The translations under genes and the position numbers were made by a program. Below the pieces are notes generated by a model. The model did not search any database, was not told the origin of the DNA, and saw nothing but the letters and a program-made list of their open reading frames with translations. A stretch of DNA of 64,000 nt from the NCBI RefSeq assembly GCF_002979435.1, contig NZ_PCOV01000002.1, positions 620,001-684,000 on the forward strand, written 5' to 3'. This DNA comes from Microbacterium sp. MYb66. GTDB lineage: Bacteria; Actinomycetota; Actinomycetes; Actinomycetales; Microbacteriaceae. This document shows, in pieces, positions 54,137 through 61,799 of this stretch; positions within the stretch are counted from its first letter, which is position 1, and every line of letters begins with the position of its first letter.

Positions 54137-54871
54137 CTAGACGCCGACGACCCGCGACGCGGGCGCGGCGGGCGGAGCAGAGCGCGGCGCCGGGGGCGGC
54201 GGCGGGGCGAGCTGACGCTGCGGCACGCCGTGCGCCTCGCGGTGCAGTCTCTCCATGCGGCTGTCGAGCTCGGCGGCGGCATCGGCGGCGTCCGACAGGC
54301 TGTCGACGAGGTGCGAGGGCACCTGGTTCGAGAACTTGTAGTAGATCTTGTGCTCGAGACTCGCCCAGAAGTCCATCGCGATCGTGCGGAACTGCACCTC
54401 CACCGGCACCGACAGCGCACCGGTCGACAGGAACACCGGCACCTCGATGATGGCGTGCAGGCTCTTGTAGCCGTTGGCCTTCGGGTGGGCGATGTAGTCC
54501 TTGACCGTGCGCACCGTGACGTCGTCCTGCGCGGTGAGCAGGTCGAACAGGCGGTACACGTCGGCGACGAAGCTGCAGGTCACGCGCACGCCGGCGATGT
54601 CGGTGATCTCGGTGCGGATGCGGTCGAAGTCGGGCTCGGCGATCCCCTTGCGGGCGATCTTCTCGACGATGCTGTCCGGCGACTTGAGACGGCTCTTCAC
54701 GTGCTCGATCGGGTTGTACGCGTGGTCGTGCGTGAACTCGTCCCGCAGGATCGAGATCTTGGTCTCGACCTCGCGCATCCCGAACTCGTACTCGCGCAGG
54801 AACCGCTGCAGCTCGTCACGCAGCTCGCGGGCCCGGTTGATCGTGTCCTCGGTCACGTGAACGGTCGACAT
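54137..54871 (-). CDS. Small alarmone synthetase (RelA/SpoT domain GTP pyrophosphokinase)
   Basis: 244 residues; transfers pyrophosphate from ATP to GDP/GTP to make (p)ppGpp. YjbM/RelQ-like: helical N-terminus 'ELRDELQRFLREYEFGMREVETKI', synthetase core 'DIAGVRVTCSFVADVYRLFDLL', 'HPKANGYKSLHAIIEVP' and 'VEVQFRTIAMDFWASLEHKIYY'. No hydrolase, TGS or ACT domain. The Pro/Ala tail (about 220-244) is disordered. ATG 54871 follows TAACGT plus 7 nt, a leaderless pattern. Confidence 0.93.
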   Translation of the reverse strand: MSTVHVTEDTINRARELRDELQRFLREYEFGMREVETKISILRDEFTHDHAYNPIEHVKSRLKSPDSIVEKIARKGIAEPDFDRIRTEITDIAGVRVTCSFVADVYRLFDLLTAQDDVTVRTVKDYIAHPKANGYKSLHAIIEVPVFLSTGALSVPVEVQFRTIAMDFWASLEHKIYYKFSNQVPSHLVDSLSDAADAAAELDSRMERLHREAHGVPQRQLAPPPPPAPRSAPPAAPASRVVGV

Positions 54872-54962
54872 GTCATCGACGTTACGGGTTCGTGATCGGA
54901 AACCGCTGTGGATGTGCGATGTCCTGACGATTCCCGTACGGCCGCGCCGGGCTCGCCCGGGA

Positions 54963-55703
54963 TCAGGGACGCGGGCCGGCGGGGTCCTGGCCGAGACCCG
55001 CCTCGCGCGCACGCACGATCAGCGCACTGCGGTCGGAGACGGCGAGCTTCGCGAGGATGCCGGACAGGTAGTTGCGCACGGTCTTCGAGGAGAGCACGAG
55101 CCGCCGGGCGACGGCCTGGTTGTCGAGCCCGCGGGCGATGAGGTCGAGCACCTCGCGCTCCCGGTGCGTCAGTTCGGGGAACACCACGGGACCGGTCGTA
55201 CGCGCCCCGGAGAGCAGCTCGATAGCCCGCTGCCCGATCTCGGCGGTGAGCAGCACGTCGCCGGATGCGACAGCCCGAAGCCCGCGTTCGATCTCGTCGG
55301 GCAGCGCACTCTTGAGCAGGTAGCCGCGGGCACCGGCACGGAGCGCGGCGAACACCGAGTCGTCGTCGCCGAGCATCGTGACGATGAGCACCCCGATCCC
55401 GGGAGCCGCCCGGACGATGCGGCGCGTGGCCTCGATGCCCGACCCCGAGCCGAGGTCGACGTCCATCAGGACCACGTCCGGCTGCGCGGCCAGGACCCCG
55501 TCGACCGCTTCGTCTTCGGCACCGGCCCGACCGACCACCTCGAACCCCTCGATCGACTCGAGGAAGCTCGACATCCCGTAGGCGAAGACCGGGTGATCGT
55601 CGACGACGAAGATGCGCACGGCGCTGTCGGGATCCGTCGCGTCCCCGCCGCCCGGCTGCTCTGGCATGCCGCTCACGCTAGCGGTCCCGTCGTCGGCGCG
55701 CAT
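54963..55703 (-). CDS. NarL/LuxR-family response regulator
   Basis: 246 residues. Receiver domain at about 30-150 with acidic pocket 'VDDH', phospho-acceptor Asp in 'PDVVLMDVDLGSGSG', Thr in 'VTMLGDDD' and Lys in 'YLLKSALP'; C-terminal helix-turn-helix 'LTHREREVLDLIARGLDNQAVARRL', 'SSKTVRNYLSGILAKL'. Start is uncertain between ATG 55703 (AGGA upstream) and ATG 55667 (MPEQPGGG). Divergent from the two kinases, which are its likely partners. Candidate binder of the GTCCCGNNGTCCCGG elements. Confidence 0.93.
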   Translation of the reverse strand: MRADDGTASVSGMPEQPGGGDATDPDSAVRIFVVDDHPVFAYGMSSFLESIEGFEVVGRAGAEDEAVDGVLAAQPDVVLMDVDLGSGSGIEATRRIVRAAPGIGVLIVTMLGDDDSVFAALRAGARGYLLKSALPDEIERGLRAVASGDVLLTAEIGQRAIELLSGARTTGPVVFPELTHREREVLDLIARGLDNQAVARRLVLSSKTVRNYLSGILAKLAVSDRSALIVRAREAGLGQDPAGPRP

Positions 55704-55969
55704 CACCGCGTCCTGCTCCCCGCGAGCCCCCTTTCACGCGCCCTCGGCGGGAGCAGCCCGATCTGCTCCCGCCGAGTCCCCGACGCAGCTCGCTTCTGCG
55801 TGAGCATCCGCATCGACACGGCCGGTGTCCCCGTACCGGCCCCCGTCGATCGCGCTCCGTCCCCCCGCGCGCCCGTCGCCCCGTCCGACCGCGCATGCTT
55901 CCTCCTCCCGCCGCCCCGGAGGCCGGCTGCGGCGCCGACGGGTGTCGACGACCACCACCGACGATAGGA
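55704..55969. other. Divergent regulator-kinase spacer, proximal part, with a 14-bp hairpin
   Basis: No convincing gene. It contains a perfect inverted repeat CTCGGCGGGAGCAG-N6-CTGCTCCCGCCGAG (55743-55776), 40 nt upstream of the response-regulator start. It could be an operator or a leader hairpin. The rest (55777-55969) shows no feature I can support. Confidence 0.55.
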
Positions 55970-56093: not shown

Positions 56094-57989
56094 GTGACCG
56101 CCACGGCCGATGCACGCACCGCGACGCACTCACGGCACCGCGTCGCCCGCGCGCTGCCCGCGACACTCCTGCTGGTGCTGTCCTGGGTCCCCGCACTGGT
56201 CGGGATGCTGCTGTGCCTGCGCTCGGCGACCGGGATCGAAGCCGTGGGAACGCTCAGCGCCGCCCTGGCGTTCGGCGGAGCGGCCGCGCTGCTCCCGGCG
56301 CGGGGCGGACACGGCGGCCGCGGCGGCCCCCTGCTCCCGGTCGCCCTCGGGGTGGCGGCCGTGGGTGCCGGAGCATCCACCCTGGCCTCCGGATTCCGGG
56401 CGGCGGGGATCGGCGGCGGCCTCGGGATCGATCTGTTGGGCGTGGCGTGGATGCCCGGCGGCCTCACGGTCTCGGGCGTGCTGGGGGCGGCGGTGCTGCT
56501 CCGCTCACGCTCCCTGCTGGCCGGTGGCGCGCTGCTCTCCACCGCGATCGCCGCCGTGAGCGCCGTGGAGCTCCACCAAGCGCGTCCCTTCCCACTCGCC
56601 GCGGTGCTGTGGACCGTGTGGCTCGCGCTCGCGTTCGGATGCGGCCTGATGATCCTCTGGGCGGCGCGTCGGCGCTCGTCCCCCGACCGCGAGGCCGCGG
56701 TCTGGCTGGCCATCGCTCATTTCGCGCTCCTGGGCTCGGGGGTCGGCGGCTACATCATCGGCGAGGAGGGCGGATCGTCGTTCATCGGCACAGCGTTCGC
56801 CGCGGCATTCCTGCCGGCGGGTGTGCTGTTCGCCGCGGCATCCTTCGTGCTCACCGCGATCGCCCGCGCCCCGGATGCCGTCGACCCGCCCCGCGCGCGC
56901 TTCGCCGTCGGGGTGCTGCTGATGTCGGCTCTGCTCGTCGCCTACGGGGCGGTCGCCGCGACCGCGGCCCAGGTGGCCCCGCTCACCCCGACGAGCGGCG
57001 GCATGATCGCCGTGGTGCTCCTCGCGGTGGGCGCGGAGCCGGCCCGCCGCGGCATCCAACGGGCGGTCGACCAGCTGCTCTACGGCCGATCGGCCGACCC
57101 CCGTGCGCTGCTGCGCACGGTCAGCGAGGAGATCGCCGGAAGGGAAGGCGGCTCCCTCGATGCGCTGGCCGCGGCCCTGCGGCAGTCGCTGCGTCTGGGG
57201 GGCGTGGCCCTCACATCCTCGACCGGCGAGGGCATCCGCGCCGAGGCGGGGGAGGTCGACCCCACGACCCGGCAGGTCATCACCCTGTTCGCGGCCGACG
57301 GGCCGTGCGGAACCGTGGAGGTGTGCGGCGCGGCCGGGCGTCGCGCCGAGCCGCGGACGATCGATGCGCTGCGCCGGATCGGCGGCGTGCTGAGCGTCGC
57401 CGTGCTCCTCGCCGAGGTCAACGAGGGTCTGCGCGAGGCCAGGGATCGAGCCCGACGGATCGCGGCCAGCGAGCGTCGGTTCGCGCGCGCCGAGATCGAG
57501 GCGGGGATCGAGCCCGCGCTCGCGCGCATCCGCAGAGACCTGCAGGAACTCCCGACGGCGACCGATCCCGCATCGCTGCTCGGGCGGGCCTCGACCGCGC
57601 TGCAGGCGGCGACGACCGATGTGCGGGATCTGGCGCGGACGCTGCTGCCGGGGTCCCTCGACGCGGGCGACCTCCCCGGCGCCCTCGCCGAGCTCGCCAC
57701 GCGCTTCGAGCAGCCGACGCTCGTCACCGACGTGCGGCAGGCGCCCGAGCATCCGGAGGCCGTCTACCACCTCGTCGCAGAGGCGGTGCTGCGCGCTCGA
57801 CGCCGTGGCGGCATCGAGCGGATCGAGATCGTCGTGCGCTCGGCCGACCGGTGGCGACTGCGCCTGACCGGCGACGAGACGCACACCCGACCGATCCTCG
57901 GCGCGCTGCGCGCCCGTGCGGAGGAAGCCGGCTACCGCACCGACGTCGACCATGGGGCGAGCGCCCTGACCGTGGGGGAGCAGGGATGA
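56094..57989 (+). CDS. Degenerate membrane histidine kinase (pseudokinase)
   Basis: 631 residues. About ten membrane segments fill residues 20-325, then a GAF-like region ('QLLYGRSADPRALLRTVSEEI', 'LAAALRQSLRLGGVALTSS') homologous to that of the downstream kinase. In the kinase half the H-box is absent: where the partner has RRELHDGLGP this protein has 'RRFARAEIEAGIEPALARIRRDL'. The N-box Asn and the DxGxG motif are also missing ('EAVLRARRRGGIERIEIVV', 'GDETHT'). So it should neither autophosphorylate nor bind ATP normally. GTG 56094 has GAGGAG 5 nt upstream. Overlaps the next gene as ATGA. Confidence 0.85.
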   Translation: MTATADARTATHSRHRVARALPATLLLVLSWVPALVGMLLCLRSATGIEAVGTLSAALAFGGAAALLPARGGHGGRGGPLLPVALGVAAVGAGASTLASGFRAAGIGGGLGIDLLGVAWMPGGLTVSGVLGAAVLLRSRSLLAGGALLSTAIAAVSAVELHQARPFPLAAVLWTVWLALAFGCGLMILWAARRRSSPDREAAVWLAIAHFALLGSGVGGYIIGEEGGSSFIGTAFAAAFLPAGVLFAAASFVLTAIARAPDAVDPPRARFAVGVLLMSALLVAYGAVAATAAQVAPLTPTSGGMIAVVLLAVGAEPARRGIQRAVDQLLYGRSADPRALLRTVSEEIAGREGGSLDALAAALRQSLRLGGVALTSSTGEGIRAEAGEVDPTTRQVITLFAADGPCGTVEVCGAAGRRAEPRTIDALRRIGGVLSVAVLLAEVNEGLREARDRARRIAASERRFARAEIEAGIEPALARIRRDLQELPTATDPASLLGRASTALQAATTDVRDLARTLLPGSLDAGDLPGALAELATRFEQPTLVTDVRQAPEHPEAVYHLVAEAVLRARRRGGIERIEIVVRSADRWRLRLTGDETHTRPILGALRARAEEAGYRTDVDHGASALTVGEQG

Positions 57990-60043
57990 CCCGCCCGACG
58001 CGAACCCGGACCGCCGCCGCACTCGCCGTGCTGATCCCGGCGTGGGGGCTGGCGGCCGCGTCGATCGCGCTCGCGTGGATCTTCCAGCTTCCCGCCGCCC
58101 CCGTCGCGGGGACCTTCCTGTCCCCTGCTCCCCCCGAAGCCCAGGCGCGTTTCGACGACATCGGCGTCGCGGTCGCCGTCGTCTACGCCCCGCTCGCGGC
58201 GGTGCTGCTGCTGCGTCGTCCGCAGCCGGTGGCGATCCTCCTGGGCGCGCACGCGGTCGGATCCGGGCTCGCGGCGTTCGGCGTGCAATACGGACTGCTG
58301 GCGCTCGAGCATCCGTCTCTGCCCGGCGCGGGTCTGCTCGCTTACGCCGGCGGCTGGGCGTTCGTCCCGGGCACGTTCCTGACCGCGATCGTGCCGCTGC
58401 TGCTCCTGCCCGGCCGGCGAGGGATGCTGCGCCGCGTGCTGGTCGGTCTGGTCGCGGTCGCCGCCGCCGTGGCGACCCTCGCCTCGATGACGCAGCAGGG
58501 CGACGGGTCTCTCGACAACCCACTCGCACCCGCATGGCCGGCGTATCAGAGCATCCTGCCGGGGACGTACGCCATCGCGGCGGCCTCGACGCTCTGCTCC
58601 TCGCTGGTGGTCGCCGGCATCCTGGCACGGCAGGCGGTACGGGCCCCCCGCGAGCAGCGGTCGCCCCTCCTCTGGCTGCTCGTCGGCCACCTCTTCCTCA
58701 CCGCGTCGTACGTCGTGACGGTGCTGCCCGCCTCGCTCCAGCTCGCGGCGCCGATCTGGGTGTTCGGCACCATCGCCCCGATCGTCGGACAGATCTTCTA
58801 CCCCGCCGCCGTGCTCGTGATGGGACTGCAGCACCGTCTCCGGGGCATCGACGTCGCCGTCAGCGCCGTGCTCACCACCAGCATCCTCGCCGTACTGGCC
58901 GCGGGCGGATACCTGCTCACCATCACTGCACTCGAGAGTCCCGGGCCGGCCACTCCGATCACGGTGTTCACGACCGCCGCCGTGATCGCGATCGCCCTGC
59001 TTCCCGCACGCCGTCTCATCCGCGACCGCGTCGATCGACTGGTCTACGGCGAGTCGGGAGCGCCCGAGCGCCTCGTCAACACCCTCGGTGCCGAGGTCGG
59101 CGAGATCGCGACCGGAGCCGACGGCCTGCGCGCTCTGGCGTCGGCGCTGCGGAGGACGCTGCGCCTCGGATCGGTGCACATCAGCACTCTCAGCGGGGAT
59201 GCCGTGGGCGTGCTCGTCGGCTCTCCGCAGGGTGCTCCCGCCCTCTTCCCCCTCCATGCCGGGGGCGAGGACACCGAGGCGGCCGCGGTGCTCGCCGTCA
59301 CCGGCTCGGACCCCGACCTGCCCGTCGGCCGCCGAGCCCGCGAGGCCATCGCCGACCTCGCCCCCGTCATCGGGGTCGTCGTGCGGCTCGCCACCGCCTC
59401 GACCGCGCTGGACGCGGCACGACGCCGGGCAGCCGATGCCCGGCACGCCGAACGACGCGCGCTGCGTCGGGAACTGCACGACGGACTCGGGCCGGCGCTC
59501 TCCGGGGCCGGCTTCTCGCTCGCCGCCGCGGCGAACCAGCTCGCACGCGGCGATCGCGCGGCCGCAGAGGCGGCGGCTGTGCGCGTCAACGAGCTGCTGG
59601 ACGCGCAGACCGTCGCCCTGACCGGCCTCGCGCGCGGCGGCACGGCGGCCGTGCACGACCTCGCGGGCGACCTGGAGCGCCTGGTCGCCTCGTTCGCGGG
59701 TGCCGACAGCGGAGTGCGCCTGGTCGTCGACGGCGAGGTACGACCGGATCCTCGACGTTCCGGCATCCTGCTGCGGATGGCCTCCGAGGCGGTGCTGAAC
59801 GCCGTGCGACATGCCGAGGCGACGTCGGTCGTGGTGACGCTGGGCGGCACGGACGCGATCCTGCGCGTCCGCGACGACGGGCGCGGCCTCGGCCTGCGCT
59901 CGGGTGCGGGTGTCGGGCTCGCCTCGATGCGGGAGTGGGCCGAGCAGGCCGGGCTGCAGGTGACGTGGGAGCAGCCGGCGGAGGGCGGCACGCTCGTCGT
60001 GGTGCGTGCCGCCGACCGGGTCCGCGCAGAGCGGTCCGCCTGA
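57986..60043 (+). CDS. Membrane sensor histidine kinase, NarX/LiaS-like (HisKA_3)
   Basis: 685 residues. About ten membrane segments (20-330), GAF-like region ('RLVYGESGAPERLVNTLGAEV', 'LASALRRTLRLGSVHIST'), then the H-box 'AERRALRRELHDGLGPALSG' with the phospho-accepting His, N-box 'SEAVLNAVRHAEAT', D-box 'VRDDGRGLGL' and G-box 'GVGLASMREWAEQAG'. All catalytic motifs are intact. ATG 57986 overlaps the pseudokinase stop. Expected to phosphorylate the divergent response regulator. Signal unknown; similarity to the first gene implies tandem duplication. Confidence 0.93.
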   Translation: MTRPTRTRTAAALAVLIPAWGLAAASIALAWIFQLPAAPVAGTFLSPAPPEAQARFDDIGVAVAVVYAPLAAVLLLRRPQPVAILLGAHAVGSGLAAFGVQYGLLALEHPSLPGAGLLAYAGGWAFVPGTFLTAIVPLLLLPGRRGMLRRVLVGLVAVAAAVATLASMTQQGDGSLDNPLAPAWPAYQSILPGTYAIAAASTLCSSLVVAGILARQAVRAPREQRSPLLWLLVGHLFLTASYVVTVLPASLQLAAPIWVFGTIAPIVGQIFYPAAVLVMGLQHRLRGIDVAVSAVLTTSILAVLAAGGYLLTITALESPGPATPITVFTTAAVIAIALLPARRLIRDRVDRLVYGESGAPERLVNTLGAEVGEIATGADGLRALASALRRTLRLGSVHISTLSGDAVGVLVGSPQGAPALFPLHAGGEDTEAAAVLAVTGSDPDLPVGRRAREAIADLAPVIGVVVRLATASTALDAARRRAADARHAERRALRRELHDGLGPALSGAGFSLAAAANQLARGDRAAAEAAAVRVNELLDAQTVALTGLARGGTAAVHDLAGDLERLVASFAGADSGVRLVVDGEVRPDPRRSGILLRMASEAVLNAVRHAEATSVVVTLGGTDAILRVRDDGRGLGLRSGAGVGLASMREWAEQAGLQVTWEQPAEGGTLVVVRAADRVRAERSA

Positions 60044-60085: not shown

Positions 60086-60862
60086 TCATCGGAGCGGCTC
60101 CGCATCGGATGCCGCCGGCGCAGCAGCTCCGACCGAGCGCGTCTGCGCACGGTCGCCGACCGCGACTCCGCGGCGTCCCACCAGCAGCCACAGCGCCGCG
60201 AAGGCCAGGCCGAGCCCGCCCACCGGCCCGGCGAGACCGGGCACGCCTGTGACGATGTAGCCGGCCACCACCAGGAGCACGAGTCCCGCGAGCAGGGTGC
60301 CGAGGATGCGCGAGACCGAGCGCTCGACCCACGCCATCGCGGCGAGCGCGCCCAGCGAGACGAGCACCCCGAACCACGGGATGAACGCGCCGAAGTCGGT
60401 GAGGGCGTAGAACACGAGGAGTCCCTCGTCGTCGAAGCTGCCGAACTCGGGACCTCCGTGACCGTAGAGGGCGAGCGTGCCCTTCCAGGCGTATCCGAAT
60501 GTCAGGCCGGCGGCGGAGGTCACGAGTCCGGCGGAGAAGACGCGCGAGGCGACCGAGGTCTGCACCCGCTCGGTGCGCACCCGCCAGGCGCCGTGCAGCA
60601 CCAGAAGACAGGCGACGGCGGCGAACCCGAGGAGGAACCCGAACCGGTTCCCGGTCGGGTCGAGGTTCGGCATGTCCTCCGCGGCGGCGATGAGCACGCC
60701 GCCGCGCTCGTAGTCGGCCTCGGTCCAGGGCCGCACGTCGAAGAGGATGGTGGCGGCGAAGCCCAAGAGGCCGGCGGCGACACCCCACAGCAGCCAGAGT
60801 CGGCCTCCGCGGGGCGCGGACGGGCGTGAGCCGCGGTCACGTGCGGCGGTGATCTGAGACAT
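60086..60862 (-). CDS. Integral membrane protein of unknown function
   Basis: 258 residues with six to seven membrane segments ('LLWGVAAGLLGFAATILFDV', 'FGFLLGFAAVACLLVLHGAW', 'VFSAGLVTSAAGLTFGYAW', 'FIPWFGVLVSLGALAAMAWV', 'ILGTLLAGLVLLVVAGYIVTG'). A conserved-looking outside loop 'RPWTEADYERGGVLIAAAEDMPNLD' follows segment 1. ATG 60862 has GGAGAG upstream. Convergent with the kinase and divergent from the next membrane protein, sharing a control region with GTCCCGG elements. Family not recognised. Confidence 0.72.
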   Translation of the reverse strand: MSQITAARDRGSRPSAPRGGRLWLLWGVAAGLLGFAATILFDVRPWTEADYERGGVLIAAAEDMPNLDPTGNRFGFLLGFAAVACLLVLHGAWRVRTERVQTSVASRVFSAGLVTSAAGLTFGYAWKGTLALYGHGGPEFGSFDDEGLLVFYALTDFGAFIPWFGVLVSLGALAAMAWVERSVSRILGTLLAGLVLLVVAGYIVTGVPGLAGPVGGLGLAFAALWLLVGRRGVAVGDRAQTRSVGAAAPAASDAEPLR

Positions 60863-61109: not shown

Positions 61110-61799
61110 ATGACCGCACCCGCCGTCTCCACACCGTCAGCCCTCACCGGGACGCCTCGCCCCCGTCTCTGGGCGGTGACCGGGGCCCTCGCCGCGATCG
61201 GCTCGATCGTGAGCGTCTTCCTCTCCATGTCGCTGTCGCCGGAGTACATCCGCGGCAGTGTCATCACCTCGGAGGCGATCAACGCCGGCCTCATGGACAA
61301 ACGCCCGCTGCTGATCGCCTTCCACATCGCGACGCTGGCCTCGGGGCTGCTGGTCGTGATCTTCGCGGCGGGTCTGCATCGGCGGCTGCACGCGACCACG
61401 GGTCCGCAGTCGATCGCACCGCTCGTCGCCTTCGCCGGACTGCTGCTGGTCGCCGCGGCGCAGGTGCTCGGCAGCGGACTGGACACCGAGTTCCTGTTCG
61501 GCGTCGACGACACCGCGATCAACCTGCCGGGCGACATCGGCTTCTACTCGCACTGGATCGCCACCATCCCCTGGCTCTGGGCGGGTGGCGGGCTCGCAGC
61601 CCTCGCGGTCGGCGTCGCTTCGCGTGCCGGTGCCGCGCCGCGATGGATCGGGGTCACCGGCTTCGCTCTCGGCGGACTCACGCTGCTGCTCGCCCTCTCG
61701 CCCCTCCAGTACATGGCGGCCCTGCCCGGCTCGCTCTGGCTCCTCGTGACGGCGCTCGGGTTCGCTCTCGGCGACCGGCGAGCTTCGCGGATCCGCTGA
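61110..61799 (+). CDS. Membrane protein, DUF4386-like
   Basis: 229 residues, six membrane segments: 'LWAVTGALAAIGSIVSVFLSM', 'LLIAFHIATLASGLLVVIFAAGL', 'IAPLVAFAGLLLVAAAQVLGSG', 'HWIATIPWLWAGGGLAALAVG', 'WIGVTGFALGGLTLLLALSP', 'LPGSLWLLVTALGFALG'. Layout resembles DUF4386 proteins; function unknown. ATG 61110 has AAGGA upstream. GTCCCGG-type elements 70-110 bp upstream suggest control by the nearby two-component system. Confidence 0.72.
   Translation: MTAPAVSTPSALTGTPRPRLWAVTGALAAIGSIVSVFLSMSLSPEYIRGSVITSEAINAGLMDKRPLLIAFHIATLASGLLVVIFAAGLHRRLHATTGPQSIAPLVAFAGLLLVAAAQVLGSGLDTEFLFGVDDTAINLPGDIGFYSHWIATIPWLWAGGGLAALAVGVASRAGAAPRWIGVTGFALGGLTLLLALSPLQYMAALPGSLWLLVTALGFALGDRRASRIR

What the first reader, a model, noticed from the sequence alone, without database searches (positions are those of the whole stretch)
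56094..60043. Tandem membrane kinases, the first stripped of both phosphorylation and ATP motifs
Seen: two adjacent, coupled proteins share ten-segment sensor and GAF-like regions. The second keeps H, N, D and G boxes; the first lacks the H-box His, the N-box Asn and DxGxG. Inferred: after duplication, the first became a pseudokinase that may heterodimerise with and control the active kinase, or act as a second sensor input. Retention of an open 631-codon frame with 4-nt coupling argues against simple decay.
Basis: partly seen in the sequence, partly recalled or inferred. Interest (0 to 1): 0.72.

Follow-up and report, generated by a model that had tools for sequence, protein, structure and literature searches.

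The report
Kinase pair with a dead half
In some Microbacterium bacteria and their relatives a membrane sensor kinase was copied in tandem, and the first copy has lost the motifs for binding ATP and, here, for accepting phosphate, yet its frame stays open under selection, so it likely serves as the sensing half of a two-protein kinase whose second copy does the chemistry.

Summary
HK1 (56094-57989) and HK2 (57986-60043) overlap by 4 nt (ATGA) and share one layout: predicted membrane helices, GAF-like, DHp, CA. HK2 keeps every catalytic box. HK1 has Glu469 at the phosphoacceptor-His site and no N-, D- or G-box. It is not simple decay: 18 such pairs (12 of 366 Microbacterium genomes, 6 in three other genera) all have an open HK1 and the overlap; HK1 dN/dS is 0.18-0.22 in the window's clade, 0.42 in another pair, though its CA remnant is looser. 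HK1 and HK2 are sister clades with mostly mirrored branching: one old tandem duplication. No HK1 (0 of 18) has the N-box Asn or DxGxG; 6 of 18 still have the His, lost at least twice. Decay is reciprocal: a DHp-CA linker motif kept in 18 of 18 HK1 is mostly eroded in HK2. In one genome HK2 lacks about eight membrane helices while HK1 is full length. Most likely HK1 is the sensing and regulatory subunit of an HK1:HK2 heterodimer and HK2 the only enzyme; dimer formation is inferred, not tested. An uncharacterised membrane protein (60086-60862) occurs in 12 of 12 Microbacterium pair genomes and 1 of 354 others. A new natural variant of pseudo/split histidine kinases.

The parts
56094..57989 (+). 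HK1, degenerate sensor histidine kinase (pseudokinase), 631 aa from GTG 56094 (GTG 56088 also possible)
56130..57095 (+). HK1 predicted membrane sensor region, ten helices (residues 13-334)
   Evidence: AlphaFold2 model, mean pLDDT 81.4, pTM 0.59; hydropathy
57156..57332 (+). HK1 GAF-like domain core (residues about 355-413)
   Evidence: secondary structure; Foldseek matches to GAF-containing chains, prob 1.00, E 0.001 or weaker
57498..57500 (+). HK1 Glu469 codon (GAG) at the phosphoacceptor-His position
57621..57695 (+). HK1 conserved DHp-CA linker motif (residues 510-534, VRDLARTLLPGSLDAGDLPGALAEL)
   Evidence: P519, L522, D523, G525, D526, A530, L531 invariant in 18 of 18 HK1
57714..57986 (+). 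HK1 remnant of the CA (ATP-binding) domain, without N-, D- and G-boxes
57986..57989 (+). ATGA stop/start overlap of HK1 and HK2
   Evidence: ATGA in 16 and GTGA in 2 of 18 pairs
57986..60043 (+). HK2, intact HisKA_3-type sensor histidine kinase, 685 aa
59477..59479 (+). HK2 His498 codon (CAC), phosphoacceptor
   Evidence: His in 18 of 18 HK2
59798..59800 (+). HK2 Asn605 codon, N-box
   Evidence: Asn in 18 of 18 HK2
59873..59917 (+). HK2 D-box DxGxG and G-box GxG (residues 630-644)
   Evidence: 18 of 18 HK2
54963..55706 (-). NarL/LuxR-type response regulator, divergent from HK1 (likely start ATG at 55667)
   Evidence: Response_reg 78.8 bits, GerE 56.1 bits; a relative lies in the locus in 18 of 18, next to the pair except in G481, where it is about 2.6 kb away
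55743..55776 (.). 14-bp perfect inverted repeat, 6-nt spacer, between the response regulator and HK1: candidate operator
60086..60862 (-). MP, uncharacterised membrane protein (258 aa) that co-occurs with the pair

Best explanation
HK1 is a conserved tandem copy of HK2 that has lost the ATP-binding boxes and, in this window, the phosphoacceptor histidine, and it is predicted to act as the sensing and regulatory subunit of an HK1:HK2 heterodimer in which HK2 would be the only enzyme. Shown: the duplication, the loss of H, N, D and G boxes in HK1, their full retention in HK2, purifying selection on HK1 as a whole, strict pairing, and reciprocal loss of a linker motif in HK2. Inferred: the two DHp domains would pair into one four-helix bundle; a signal on the membrane/GAF part of HK1 (with or without that of HK2) would change the bundle and so switch HK2; HK2 would phosphorylate His498 with its own CA domain and pass the phosphoryl group to the NarL-type regulator encoded next door. 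In the six pairs whose HK1 still has the His, HK2 could also phosphorylate HK1 in trans; in the window's lineage this route is gone, and an acidic residue (Glu 7, Asp 3 of 11 HK1 of that lineage) sits at the site.
For: Catalytic residues: HK2 has His, Asn, DxGxG and GxG in 18 of 18; HK1 has the Asn in 0, DxGxG in 0, GxG in 1 (G204, in a glycine-rich insert) and the His in 6 of 18. Tree of 58 rows: HK1 clade (18 rows) 99/96, HK2 clade (17 rows) 100/99, the two joined at 100/99, next to single kinases of other families; 11 of 14 splits shared between the HK1 and HK2 trees, shuffled mean 0.23, largest 4 in 2000 shuffles. Selection, window against G233: HK1 0.22 (0.17-0.28), its DHp-like part 0.15 (0.06-0.29). 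Pairing: each of the 18 HK1 has HK2 downstream with a 4-nt overlap. Reciprocal decay: Pro519, Leu522 and Ala530 of the linker are in 18, 18 and 18 of 18 HK1 but 5, 5 and 4 of 18 HK2, against 8 of 8 near single kinases (three of 11 rows dropped) and 17, 17 and 15 of 17 far ones; HK2 needs at least three changes at each site on the tree, HK1 none. Natural deletion: G613 HK2 is open for 411 codons from the conserved overlap start and lacks about 289 residues, roughly the first eight membrane helices, while HK1 is full length. Precedent: a CA-dead ChrS in Corynebacterium glutamicum acts through the paralogue HrrS; its own His was dispensable and its DHp needed (PMC9491836, abstract and passages).
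Against: No physical interaction was tested and no heterodimer was modelled. HK2 carries a complete set of motifs and could work as a homodimer. The CA remnant of HK1 is its least constrained part: 0.39 (0.22-0.68) against G233, and 0.86 against G362 (point estimate only; the second method failed there), where the HK2 CA domain has 0.37. The linker motif is not universal (from memory, DesK lacks it), so its erosion in HK2 may only mean relaxed constraint; two HK2 (G247, G019) keep all three residues. The four g80 HK1 keep a DGRG remnant of the D-box, without its Asp630. The G613 deletion is a single genome and could be an assembly error. In the precedent the two-hybrid assay saw the native ChrS-HrrS heterodimer but no significant one with the truncated ChrS.
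Confidence: 0.67

Rival explanations
1. HK1 acts as a separate homodimeric allosteric partner or receptor (DivL-like): it senses a signal or the regulator and touches HK2 or the regulator transiently, without sharing a DHp bundle.
For: DivL, a pseudokinase with Tyr at the His site, repurposes its kinase fold as a sensory module that binds the phosphorylated regulator (PMC4211667, passages). HK1 keeps a whole sensor and a predicted folded CA remnant.
Against: HK1 and HK2 are paralogues with the same layout, overlap by 4 nt in 18 of 18 pairs and decay reciprocally in the DHp-CA region, which a stable heterodimer explains more simply.
Confidence: 0.18
2. HK1 tunes the system by binding the response regulator or removing its phosphate, as a sink or a dedicated phosphatase.
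For: In the HisKA_3 kinase NarX the His was nonessential for phosphatase action (PMC5231405, passages), so a His-less subunit could still be a phosphatase.
Against: The residue aligned with the Gln that serves phosphatase action in DesK (Gln193; its place five after the His is recalled) is Pro in 17 of 18 HK1 and 18 of 18 HK2, and the Asp after the His is gone in 10 of 18 HK1.
Confidence: 0.09
3. HK1 is a gene in slow decay, carried along by translational coupling to HK2.
For: The CA remnant evolves fastest and is near 0.86 against G362; the His was lost at least twice.
Against: 18 of 18 HK1 frames are open; dN/dS of whole HK1 0.18-0.22 in the window's clade and 0.42 in G247-G019, all intervals below 1; 20 invariant residues in 18 HK1, 13 of them within residues 456-540. 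Where HK2 is short or frame-disrupted (G613, G766) HK1 is open.
Confidence: 0.03

Closest known systems
ChrS pseudokinase with HrrS, Corynebacterium glutamicum (PMC9491836; abstract and passages seen)
   Same: Actinobacterial kinase with a dead CA domain that works through an active paralogue; its own His is not needed, its DHp is; heterodimers of the native kinases seen.
   Different: Arose by a frameshift in laboratory evolution; [quoted passage not shown] Here it is natural, old, tandem and conserved.
DivL of Caulobacter (PMC4211667; passages seen)
   Same: Pseudo-histidine kinase with the His replaced, repurposed as a sensory or regulatory module.
   Different: DivL keeps weak binding of an ATP analogue; HK1 lacks the nucleotide boxes. 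That DivL is no tandem copy of its partner is recalled.
Split histidine kinases CheA3/CheA4 (PMC3591291) and Hik36/Hik43 (PMC7656254), passages seen
   Same: Kinase functions divided between two proteins that act together.
   Different: CheA3 and CheA4 cannot autophosphorylate apart; HK2 here has both phosphoacceptor and ATP site.
AbrC1/AbrC2/AbrC3 of Streptomyces coelicolor (PMC4428217; passages seen)
   Same: Two kinases beside one regulator in an actinobacterium.
   Different: Both AbrC kinases autophosphorylate, and the genes are separated (114 bp between abrC1 and abrC2), not overlapping.
RetS-GacS heterodimer (PMC12189002; passages seen)
   Same: One kinase controls another through heterodimer formation.
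   Different: RetS inhibits GacS and can dephosphorylate it; that it is encoded elsewhere and not boxless is recalled.

Membership tests
HisKA_3 sensor histidine kinase | HK2: HisKA_3 and HATPase_c domains with H, N, D, G boxes | tested here: met
HisKA_3 sensor histidine kinase | HK1: phosphoacceptor His in the H-box | tested here: not met
   Glu469 in the window; His in 6 of 18 HK1
HisKA_3 sensor histidine kinase | HK1: N-, D- and G-boxes of the ATP site | tested here: not met
   Asn 0, DxGxG 0, GxG 1 of 18 HK1, none in the window; no Pfam HATPase match
HisKA_3 sensor histidine kinase | HK1: common descent of the core with DHp and CA domains | tested here: met
   tree; HK1 profile matches DesK DHp and DevS/DosT CA chains at E 6e-5 to 3e-4
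Pseudo-histidine kinase (DivL-like) | His replaced, kinase-like fold kept | tested here: met
   for the residue; fold is a prediction
Pseudo-histidine kinase (DivL-like) | acts without its own catalysis on a partner kinase or regulator | not testable with these tools
   needs biochemistry
Split histidine kinase | phosphoacceptor and ATP site on different proteins, neither complete | tested here: not met
   HK2 has both in 18 of 18
AbrC-type two kinases, one regulator | both kinases catalytically competent | tested here: not met
   the window's HK1 lacks all boxes; judged from sequence, not by assay
Heterodimeric kinase pair (RetS-GacS-like) | physical heterodimer | not testable with these tools
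   only indirect evidence

The most novel reading that the evidence does not exclude
A naturally evolved obligate heterodimeric sensor kinase made by duplication, degeneration and complementation: the upstream copy lost its ATP site first and its histidine later and became the sensor subunit, the downstream copy keeps catalysis but lost a linker element (and in one species most of its own sensor), and the module carries a dedicated membrane protein of unknown fold. The series of single intact kinase, pair with His, pair without His is preserved in living genomes.
Probability: 0.5. Interest if true: 0.78.

Novelty: new variant of a known kind. Interest (0 to 1): 0.62.

Why it matters
Histidine kinases are usually treated as symmetric homodimers. 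Six full-text searches of an open-licence library (listings seen: 1 of 1, 25 of 55, 0, 15 of 47, 7 of 8 and 0 papers) showed no natural, conserved pair like this one. The family offers a graded series (intact single kinase; ATP-dead with His; ATP-dead without His; an active partner without most of its sensor), so the order and consequences of losing each kinase function in a dimer can be tested with natural proteins. It also shows that domain-based counts miss such subunits: HK1 has no Pfam kinase hit, and of the five close relatives to which a source gave a name, four are called hypothetical protein.

Tried and rejected

Rows dropped or imperfect. In one search two near-single rows (L144, L145) were wrong-frame picks and L141 repeats s056a; the counts quoted use the other eight, recounted. 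In the tree the G613 HK2 row was cut from an over-long frame and holds about 300 spurious residues, which probably explains its long branch; G766 HK2 was left out because its frame is disrupted, and only its C-terminal piece was used. G456 was in the tree but not in the HK1/HK2 counts; G745 was not in the tree. The genome profile searches scored at most three candidates per genome and their tables were cut.
Full report
What is there. The window lies in a Microbacterium-like genome (its nearest named relative found is Microbacterium sp. MYb62, 83% identical in HK1). A NarL-type response regulator (54963-55706, minus strand) is divergent from two overlapping plus-strand genes, HK1 (56094-57989) and HK2 (57986-60043), followed by a convergent gene for a 258-aa membrane protein, MP (60086-60862). 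HK2 passes the Pfam cut-offs for HisKA_3 and HATPase_c; HK1 matches no Pfam kinase family and only a far sub-threshold NCBIfam sensor-kinase model (21 bits, cut-off 700). A profile of HK1 orthologues finds the DHp domain of DesK and the CA domains of DevS and DosT among solved structures. The predicted model (mean pLDDT 81.4, pTM 0.59) shows a ten-helix membrane part, a GAF-like domain, a long DHp-like hairpin and a small folded CA remnant; Foldseek hits to GAF-containing chains are weak in E-value.

Distribution. A profile of 12 HK1 scores 689 bits or more in 12 of 366 Microbacterium genomes; the next score, 273 bits, belongs to an HK2. Among 398 genomes drawn from the family it finds six further pairs, in three other genera: G481, G742, G613, G566, G766 and G411. 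In 396 genomes drawn from the order the strong hits outside the family (226 bits or more, 22 genomes) are one per genome, and where a second hit was listed it lies on another contig; each search scored at most three candidates per genome. Seven loci fetched there gave five readable kinases; with the earlier single relatives these make eight distinct near single kinases, all with intact H, N, D and G boxes. Every one of the 18 HK1 has an HK2 directly downstream with an ATGA (16) or GTGA (2) overlap. A NarL-type regulator is in each locus, next to the pair except in G481, where it is about 2.6 kb away. HK2 is open over its full length in 16 of 18; it is short in G613 and frame-disrupted in G766. 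A protein search (only the 7993 candidates sharing most words were scored) found 15 HK1 relatives; one is from Nocardioides sp. WV_118_6 at 60% identity, so HK1 has probably moved between orders. Its neighbours there were not seen.

Which motifs are lost, and when. HK2 keeps H498, N605, D630/G632/G634 and G642/G644 in 18 of 18. HK1 has the Asn in 0, DxGxG in 0 and GxG in 1 of 18 (G204, in a glycine-rich insert); the four g80 HK1 keep a DGRG remnant without Asp630. At the His site HK1 has His in 6, Glu in 7, Asp in 3, Gln in 1 and Ser in 1. Among the 15 database rows P0001-P0015 (P0001 is 99% identical to the window) the residue is Glu in 14 and Asp in 1 (P0012 read by eye). On the tree HK1 (18 rows, 99/96) and HK2 (17 rows, 100/99) are sister clades joined at 100/99, each divided into the same two lineages: one in which HK1 mostly keeps the His (6 of 7) and one that has lost it (11 of 11). 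His loss needs at least two changes. So one tandem duplication was followed by loss of the ATP site in HK1, and later by loss of the His. Branching is mostly mirrored: 11 of 14 splits shared, against a mean of 0.23 and at most 4 in 2000 shuffles.

Selection. For the window against G233 dN/dS is 0.22 (0.17-0.28) for HK1 and 0.19 (0.15-0.24) for HK2; the HK1 DHp-like part is 0.15 (0.06-0.29) and the CA remnant 0.39 (0.22-0.68), against 0.30 (0.17-0.51) for the HK2 CA domain. In the His-keeping pair G247-G019 HK1 is at 0.42 (0.34-0.51) and HK2 at 0.27 (0.22-0.33). Against the more distant G362 the window's CA remnant reaches 0.86 and the HK2 CA domain 0.37 (point estimates). The protein as a whole, and its DHp-linker part above all, is under purifying selection; the CA remnant is held loosely and may be near neutral over longer distances.

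Reciprocal decay. The linker between DHp and CA carries a P-x-x-L motif followed by Ala. Pro519, Leu522 and Ala530 (HK1 numbering) are kept in 18 of 18 HK1, in 8 of 8 near single kinases, and in 17, 17 and 15 of 17 far single kinases, but in only 5, 5 and 4 of 18 HK2; G247 and G019 HK2 keep all three. On the tree HK2 needs at least three changes at each site and HK1 none. Thus HK1 kept what HK2 mostly lost, and the reverse. In G613 the HK2 frame starts at the conserved overlap and runs 411 codons: about 289 residues, roughly the first eight membrane helices, are missing, the flanking DNA is collinear with G566, and HK1 is full length. If real, the enzyme of that species relies on HK1 for most of the sensor. 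It is a single genome, so an assembly error is not excluded.

How it most likely works. HK1 would pair with HK2 through the DHp helices. Signals on the membrane or GAF region of HK1 would set the state of the bundle, HK2 would autophosphorylate His498 using its own CA domain, and the regulator would be phosphorylated. In pairs whose HK1 has the His, HK2 could also phosphorylate HK1. None of these steps was tested. The nearest experimental precedent seen is the laboratory-evolved CA-dead ChrS of Corynebacterium glutamicum, which needs its DHp but not its His and depends on HrrS; there the heterodimer was shown for the native kinases, not significantly for the truncated one. The pair is not a split kinase in the strict sense, since HK2 is complete.

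Module partners. MP has no Pfam or NCBIfam match above noise and no significant fold match. In 366 Microbacterium genomes it occurs in 13: all 12 with the pair and one other, G135 (Fisher p 1.3e-21, not corrected for shared ancestry). Four of the 13 matches were listed with one TGA inside; open MP frames are seen in G086 and G247, in G061 and, shorter, in G135. MP lies in the same cluster, next to HK2 or the regulator, in 12 of 18 loci; in the other six (G061, G411 and the four g80 genomes) a predicted secreted repeat protein lies near the regulator instead, with an LAxTG-like C-terminus (motif recalled) in the three sequences that I printed. In G061 MP is on another contig, and no relative of the kinases was found in the stretch around it or around the G135 MP. 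Whether the five non-Microbacterium genomes of that group have MP elsewhere was not tested. A 14-bp perfect inverted repeat with a 6-nt spacer (55743-55776) lies between the regulator and HK1. A 22-letter core of it occurs once exactly in the genome, with one further place at one mismatch; the reversed control pattern, 6 places, was more frequent. The repeat recurs in G233 (with a symmetrical change), G250 and, altered, in G362 and G363, and is missing in G086: a candidate operator.

Literature. Searches and 73 of an open-licence library listed no description of this pair; only part of some listings was seen and most subscription papers are not held, so absence from print is not shown.

Noticed in passing
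60086-60862 (minus): MP, a membrane protein of unknown family and fold, co-occurs with the kinase pair in 12 of 12 Microbacterium pair genomes and in 1 of 354 others; a relative is found in Nocardioides.
   Followed up: partly
55743-55776: 14-bp perfect inverted repeat between the divergent regulator and HK1, conserved in near relatives, with no T-run: candidate operator.
   Followed up: partly
L129 3638-8141; L130 4487-8161: In another genus (g90: G456, G745) a different clade also has a tandem of two such kinases; in G456 the first keeps its His but lacks the N-box Asn, Asp630 and three of the four box glycines. Probably an independent origin of the same design.
   Followed up: partly
L125 7172-8407: G613 HK2 lacks about 289 residues, roughly eight membrane helices, by an in-frame deletion right after its start.
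   Followed up: yes
L127 6930-9021: G766 HK2 is split over frames, while HK1 is open; sequencing error not excluded.
   Followed up: partly
L126 9964-12099; L128 810-3077; L046 813-3812: Where MP is not in the cluster (6 of 18 loci) a predicted secreted repeat protein lies near the regulator; the three printed have an LAxTG-like C-terminus.
   Followed up: no
54137-54895 (minus): Small RelA/SpoT-type (YjbM-like, below the curated cut-off) GTP diphosphokinase just downstream of the regulator, also there in G233, G250, G362 and G363.
   Followed up: no
61110-61799 (plus): A second membrane-protein-like frame, of similar size to MP, follows it; relation to MP not tested.
   Followed up: no
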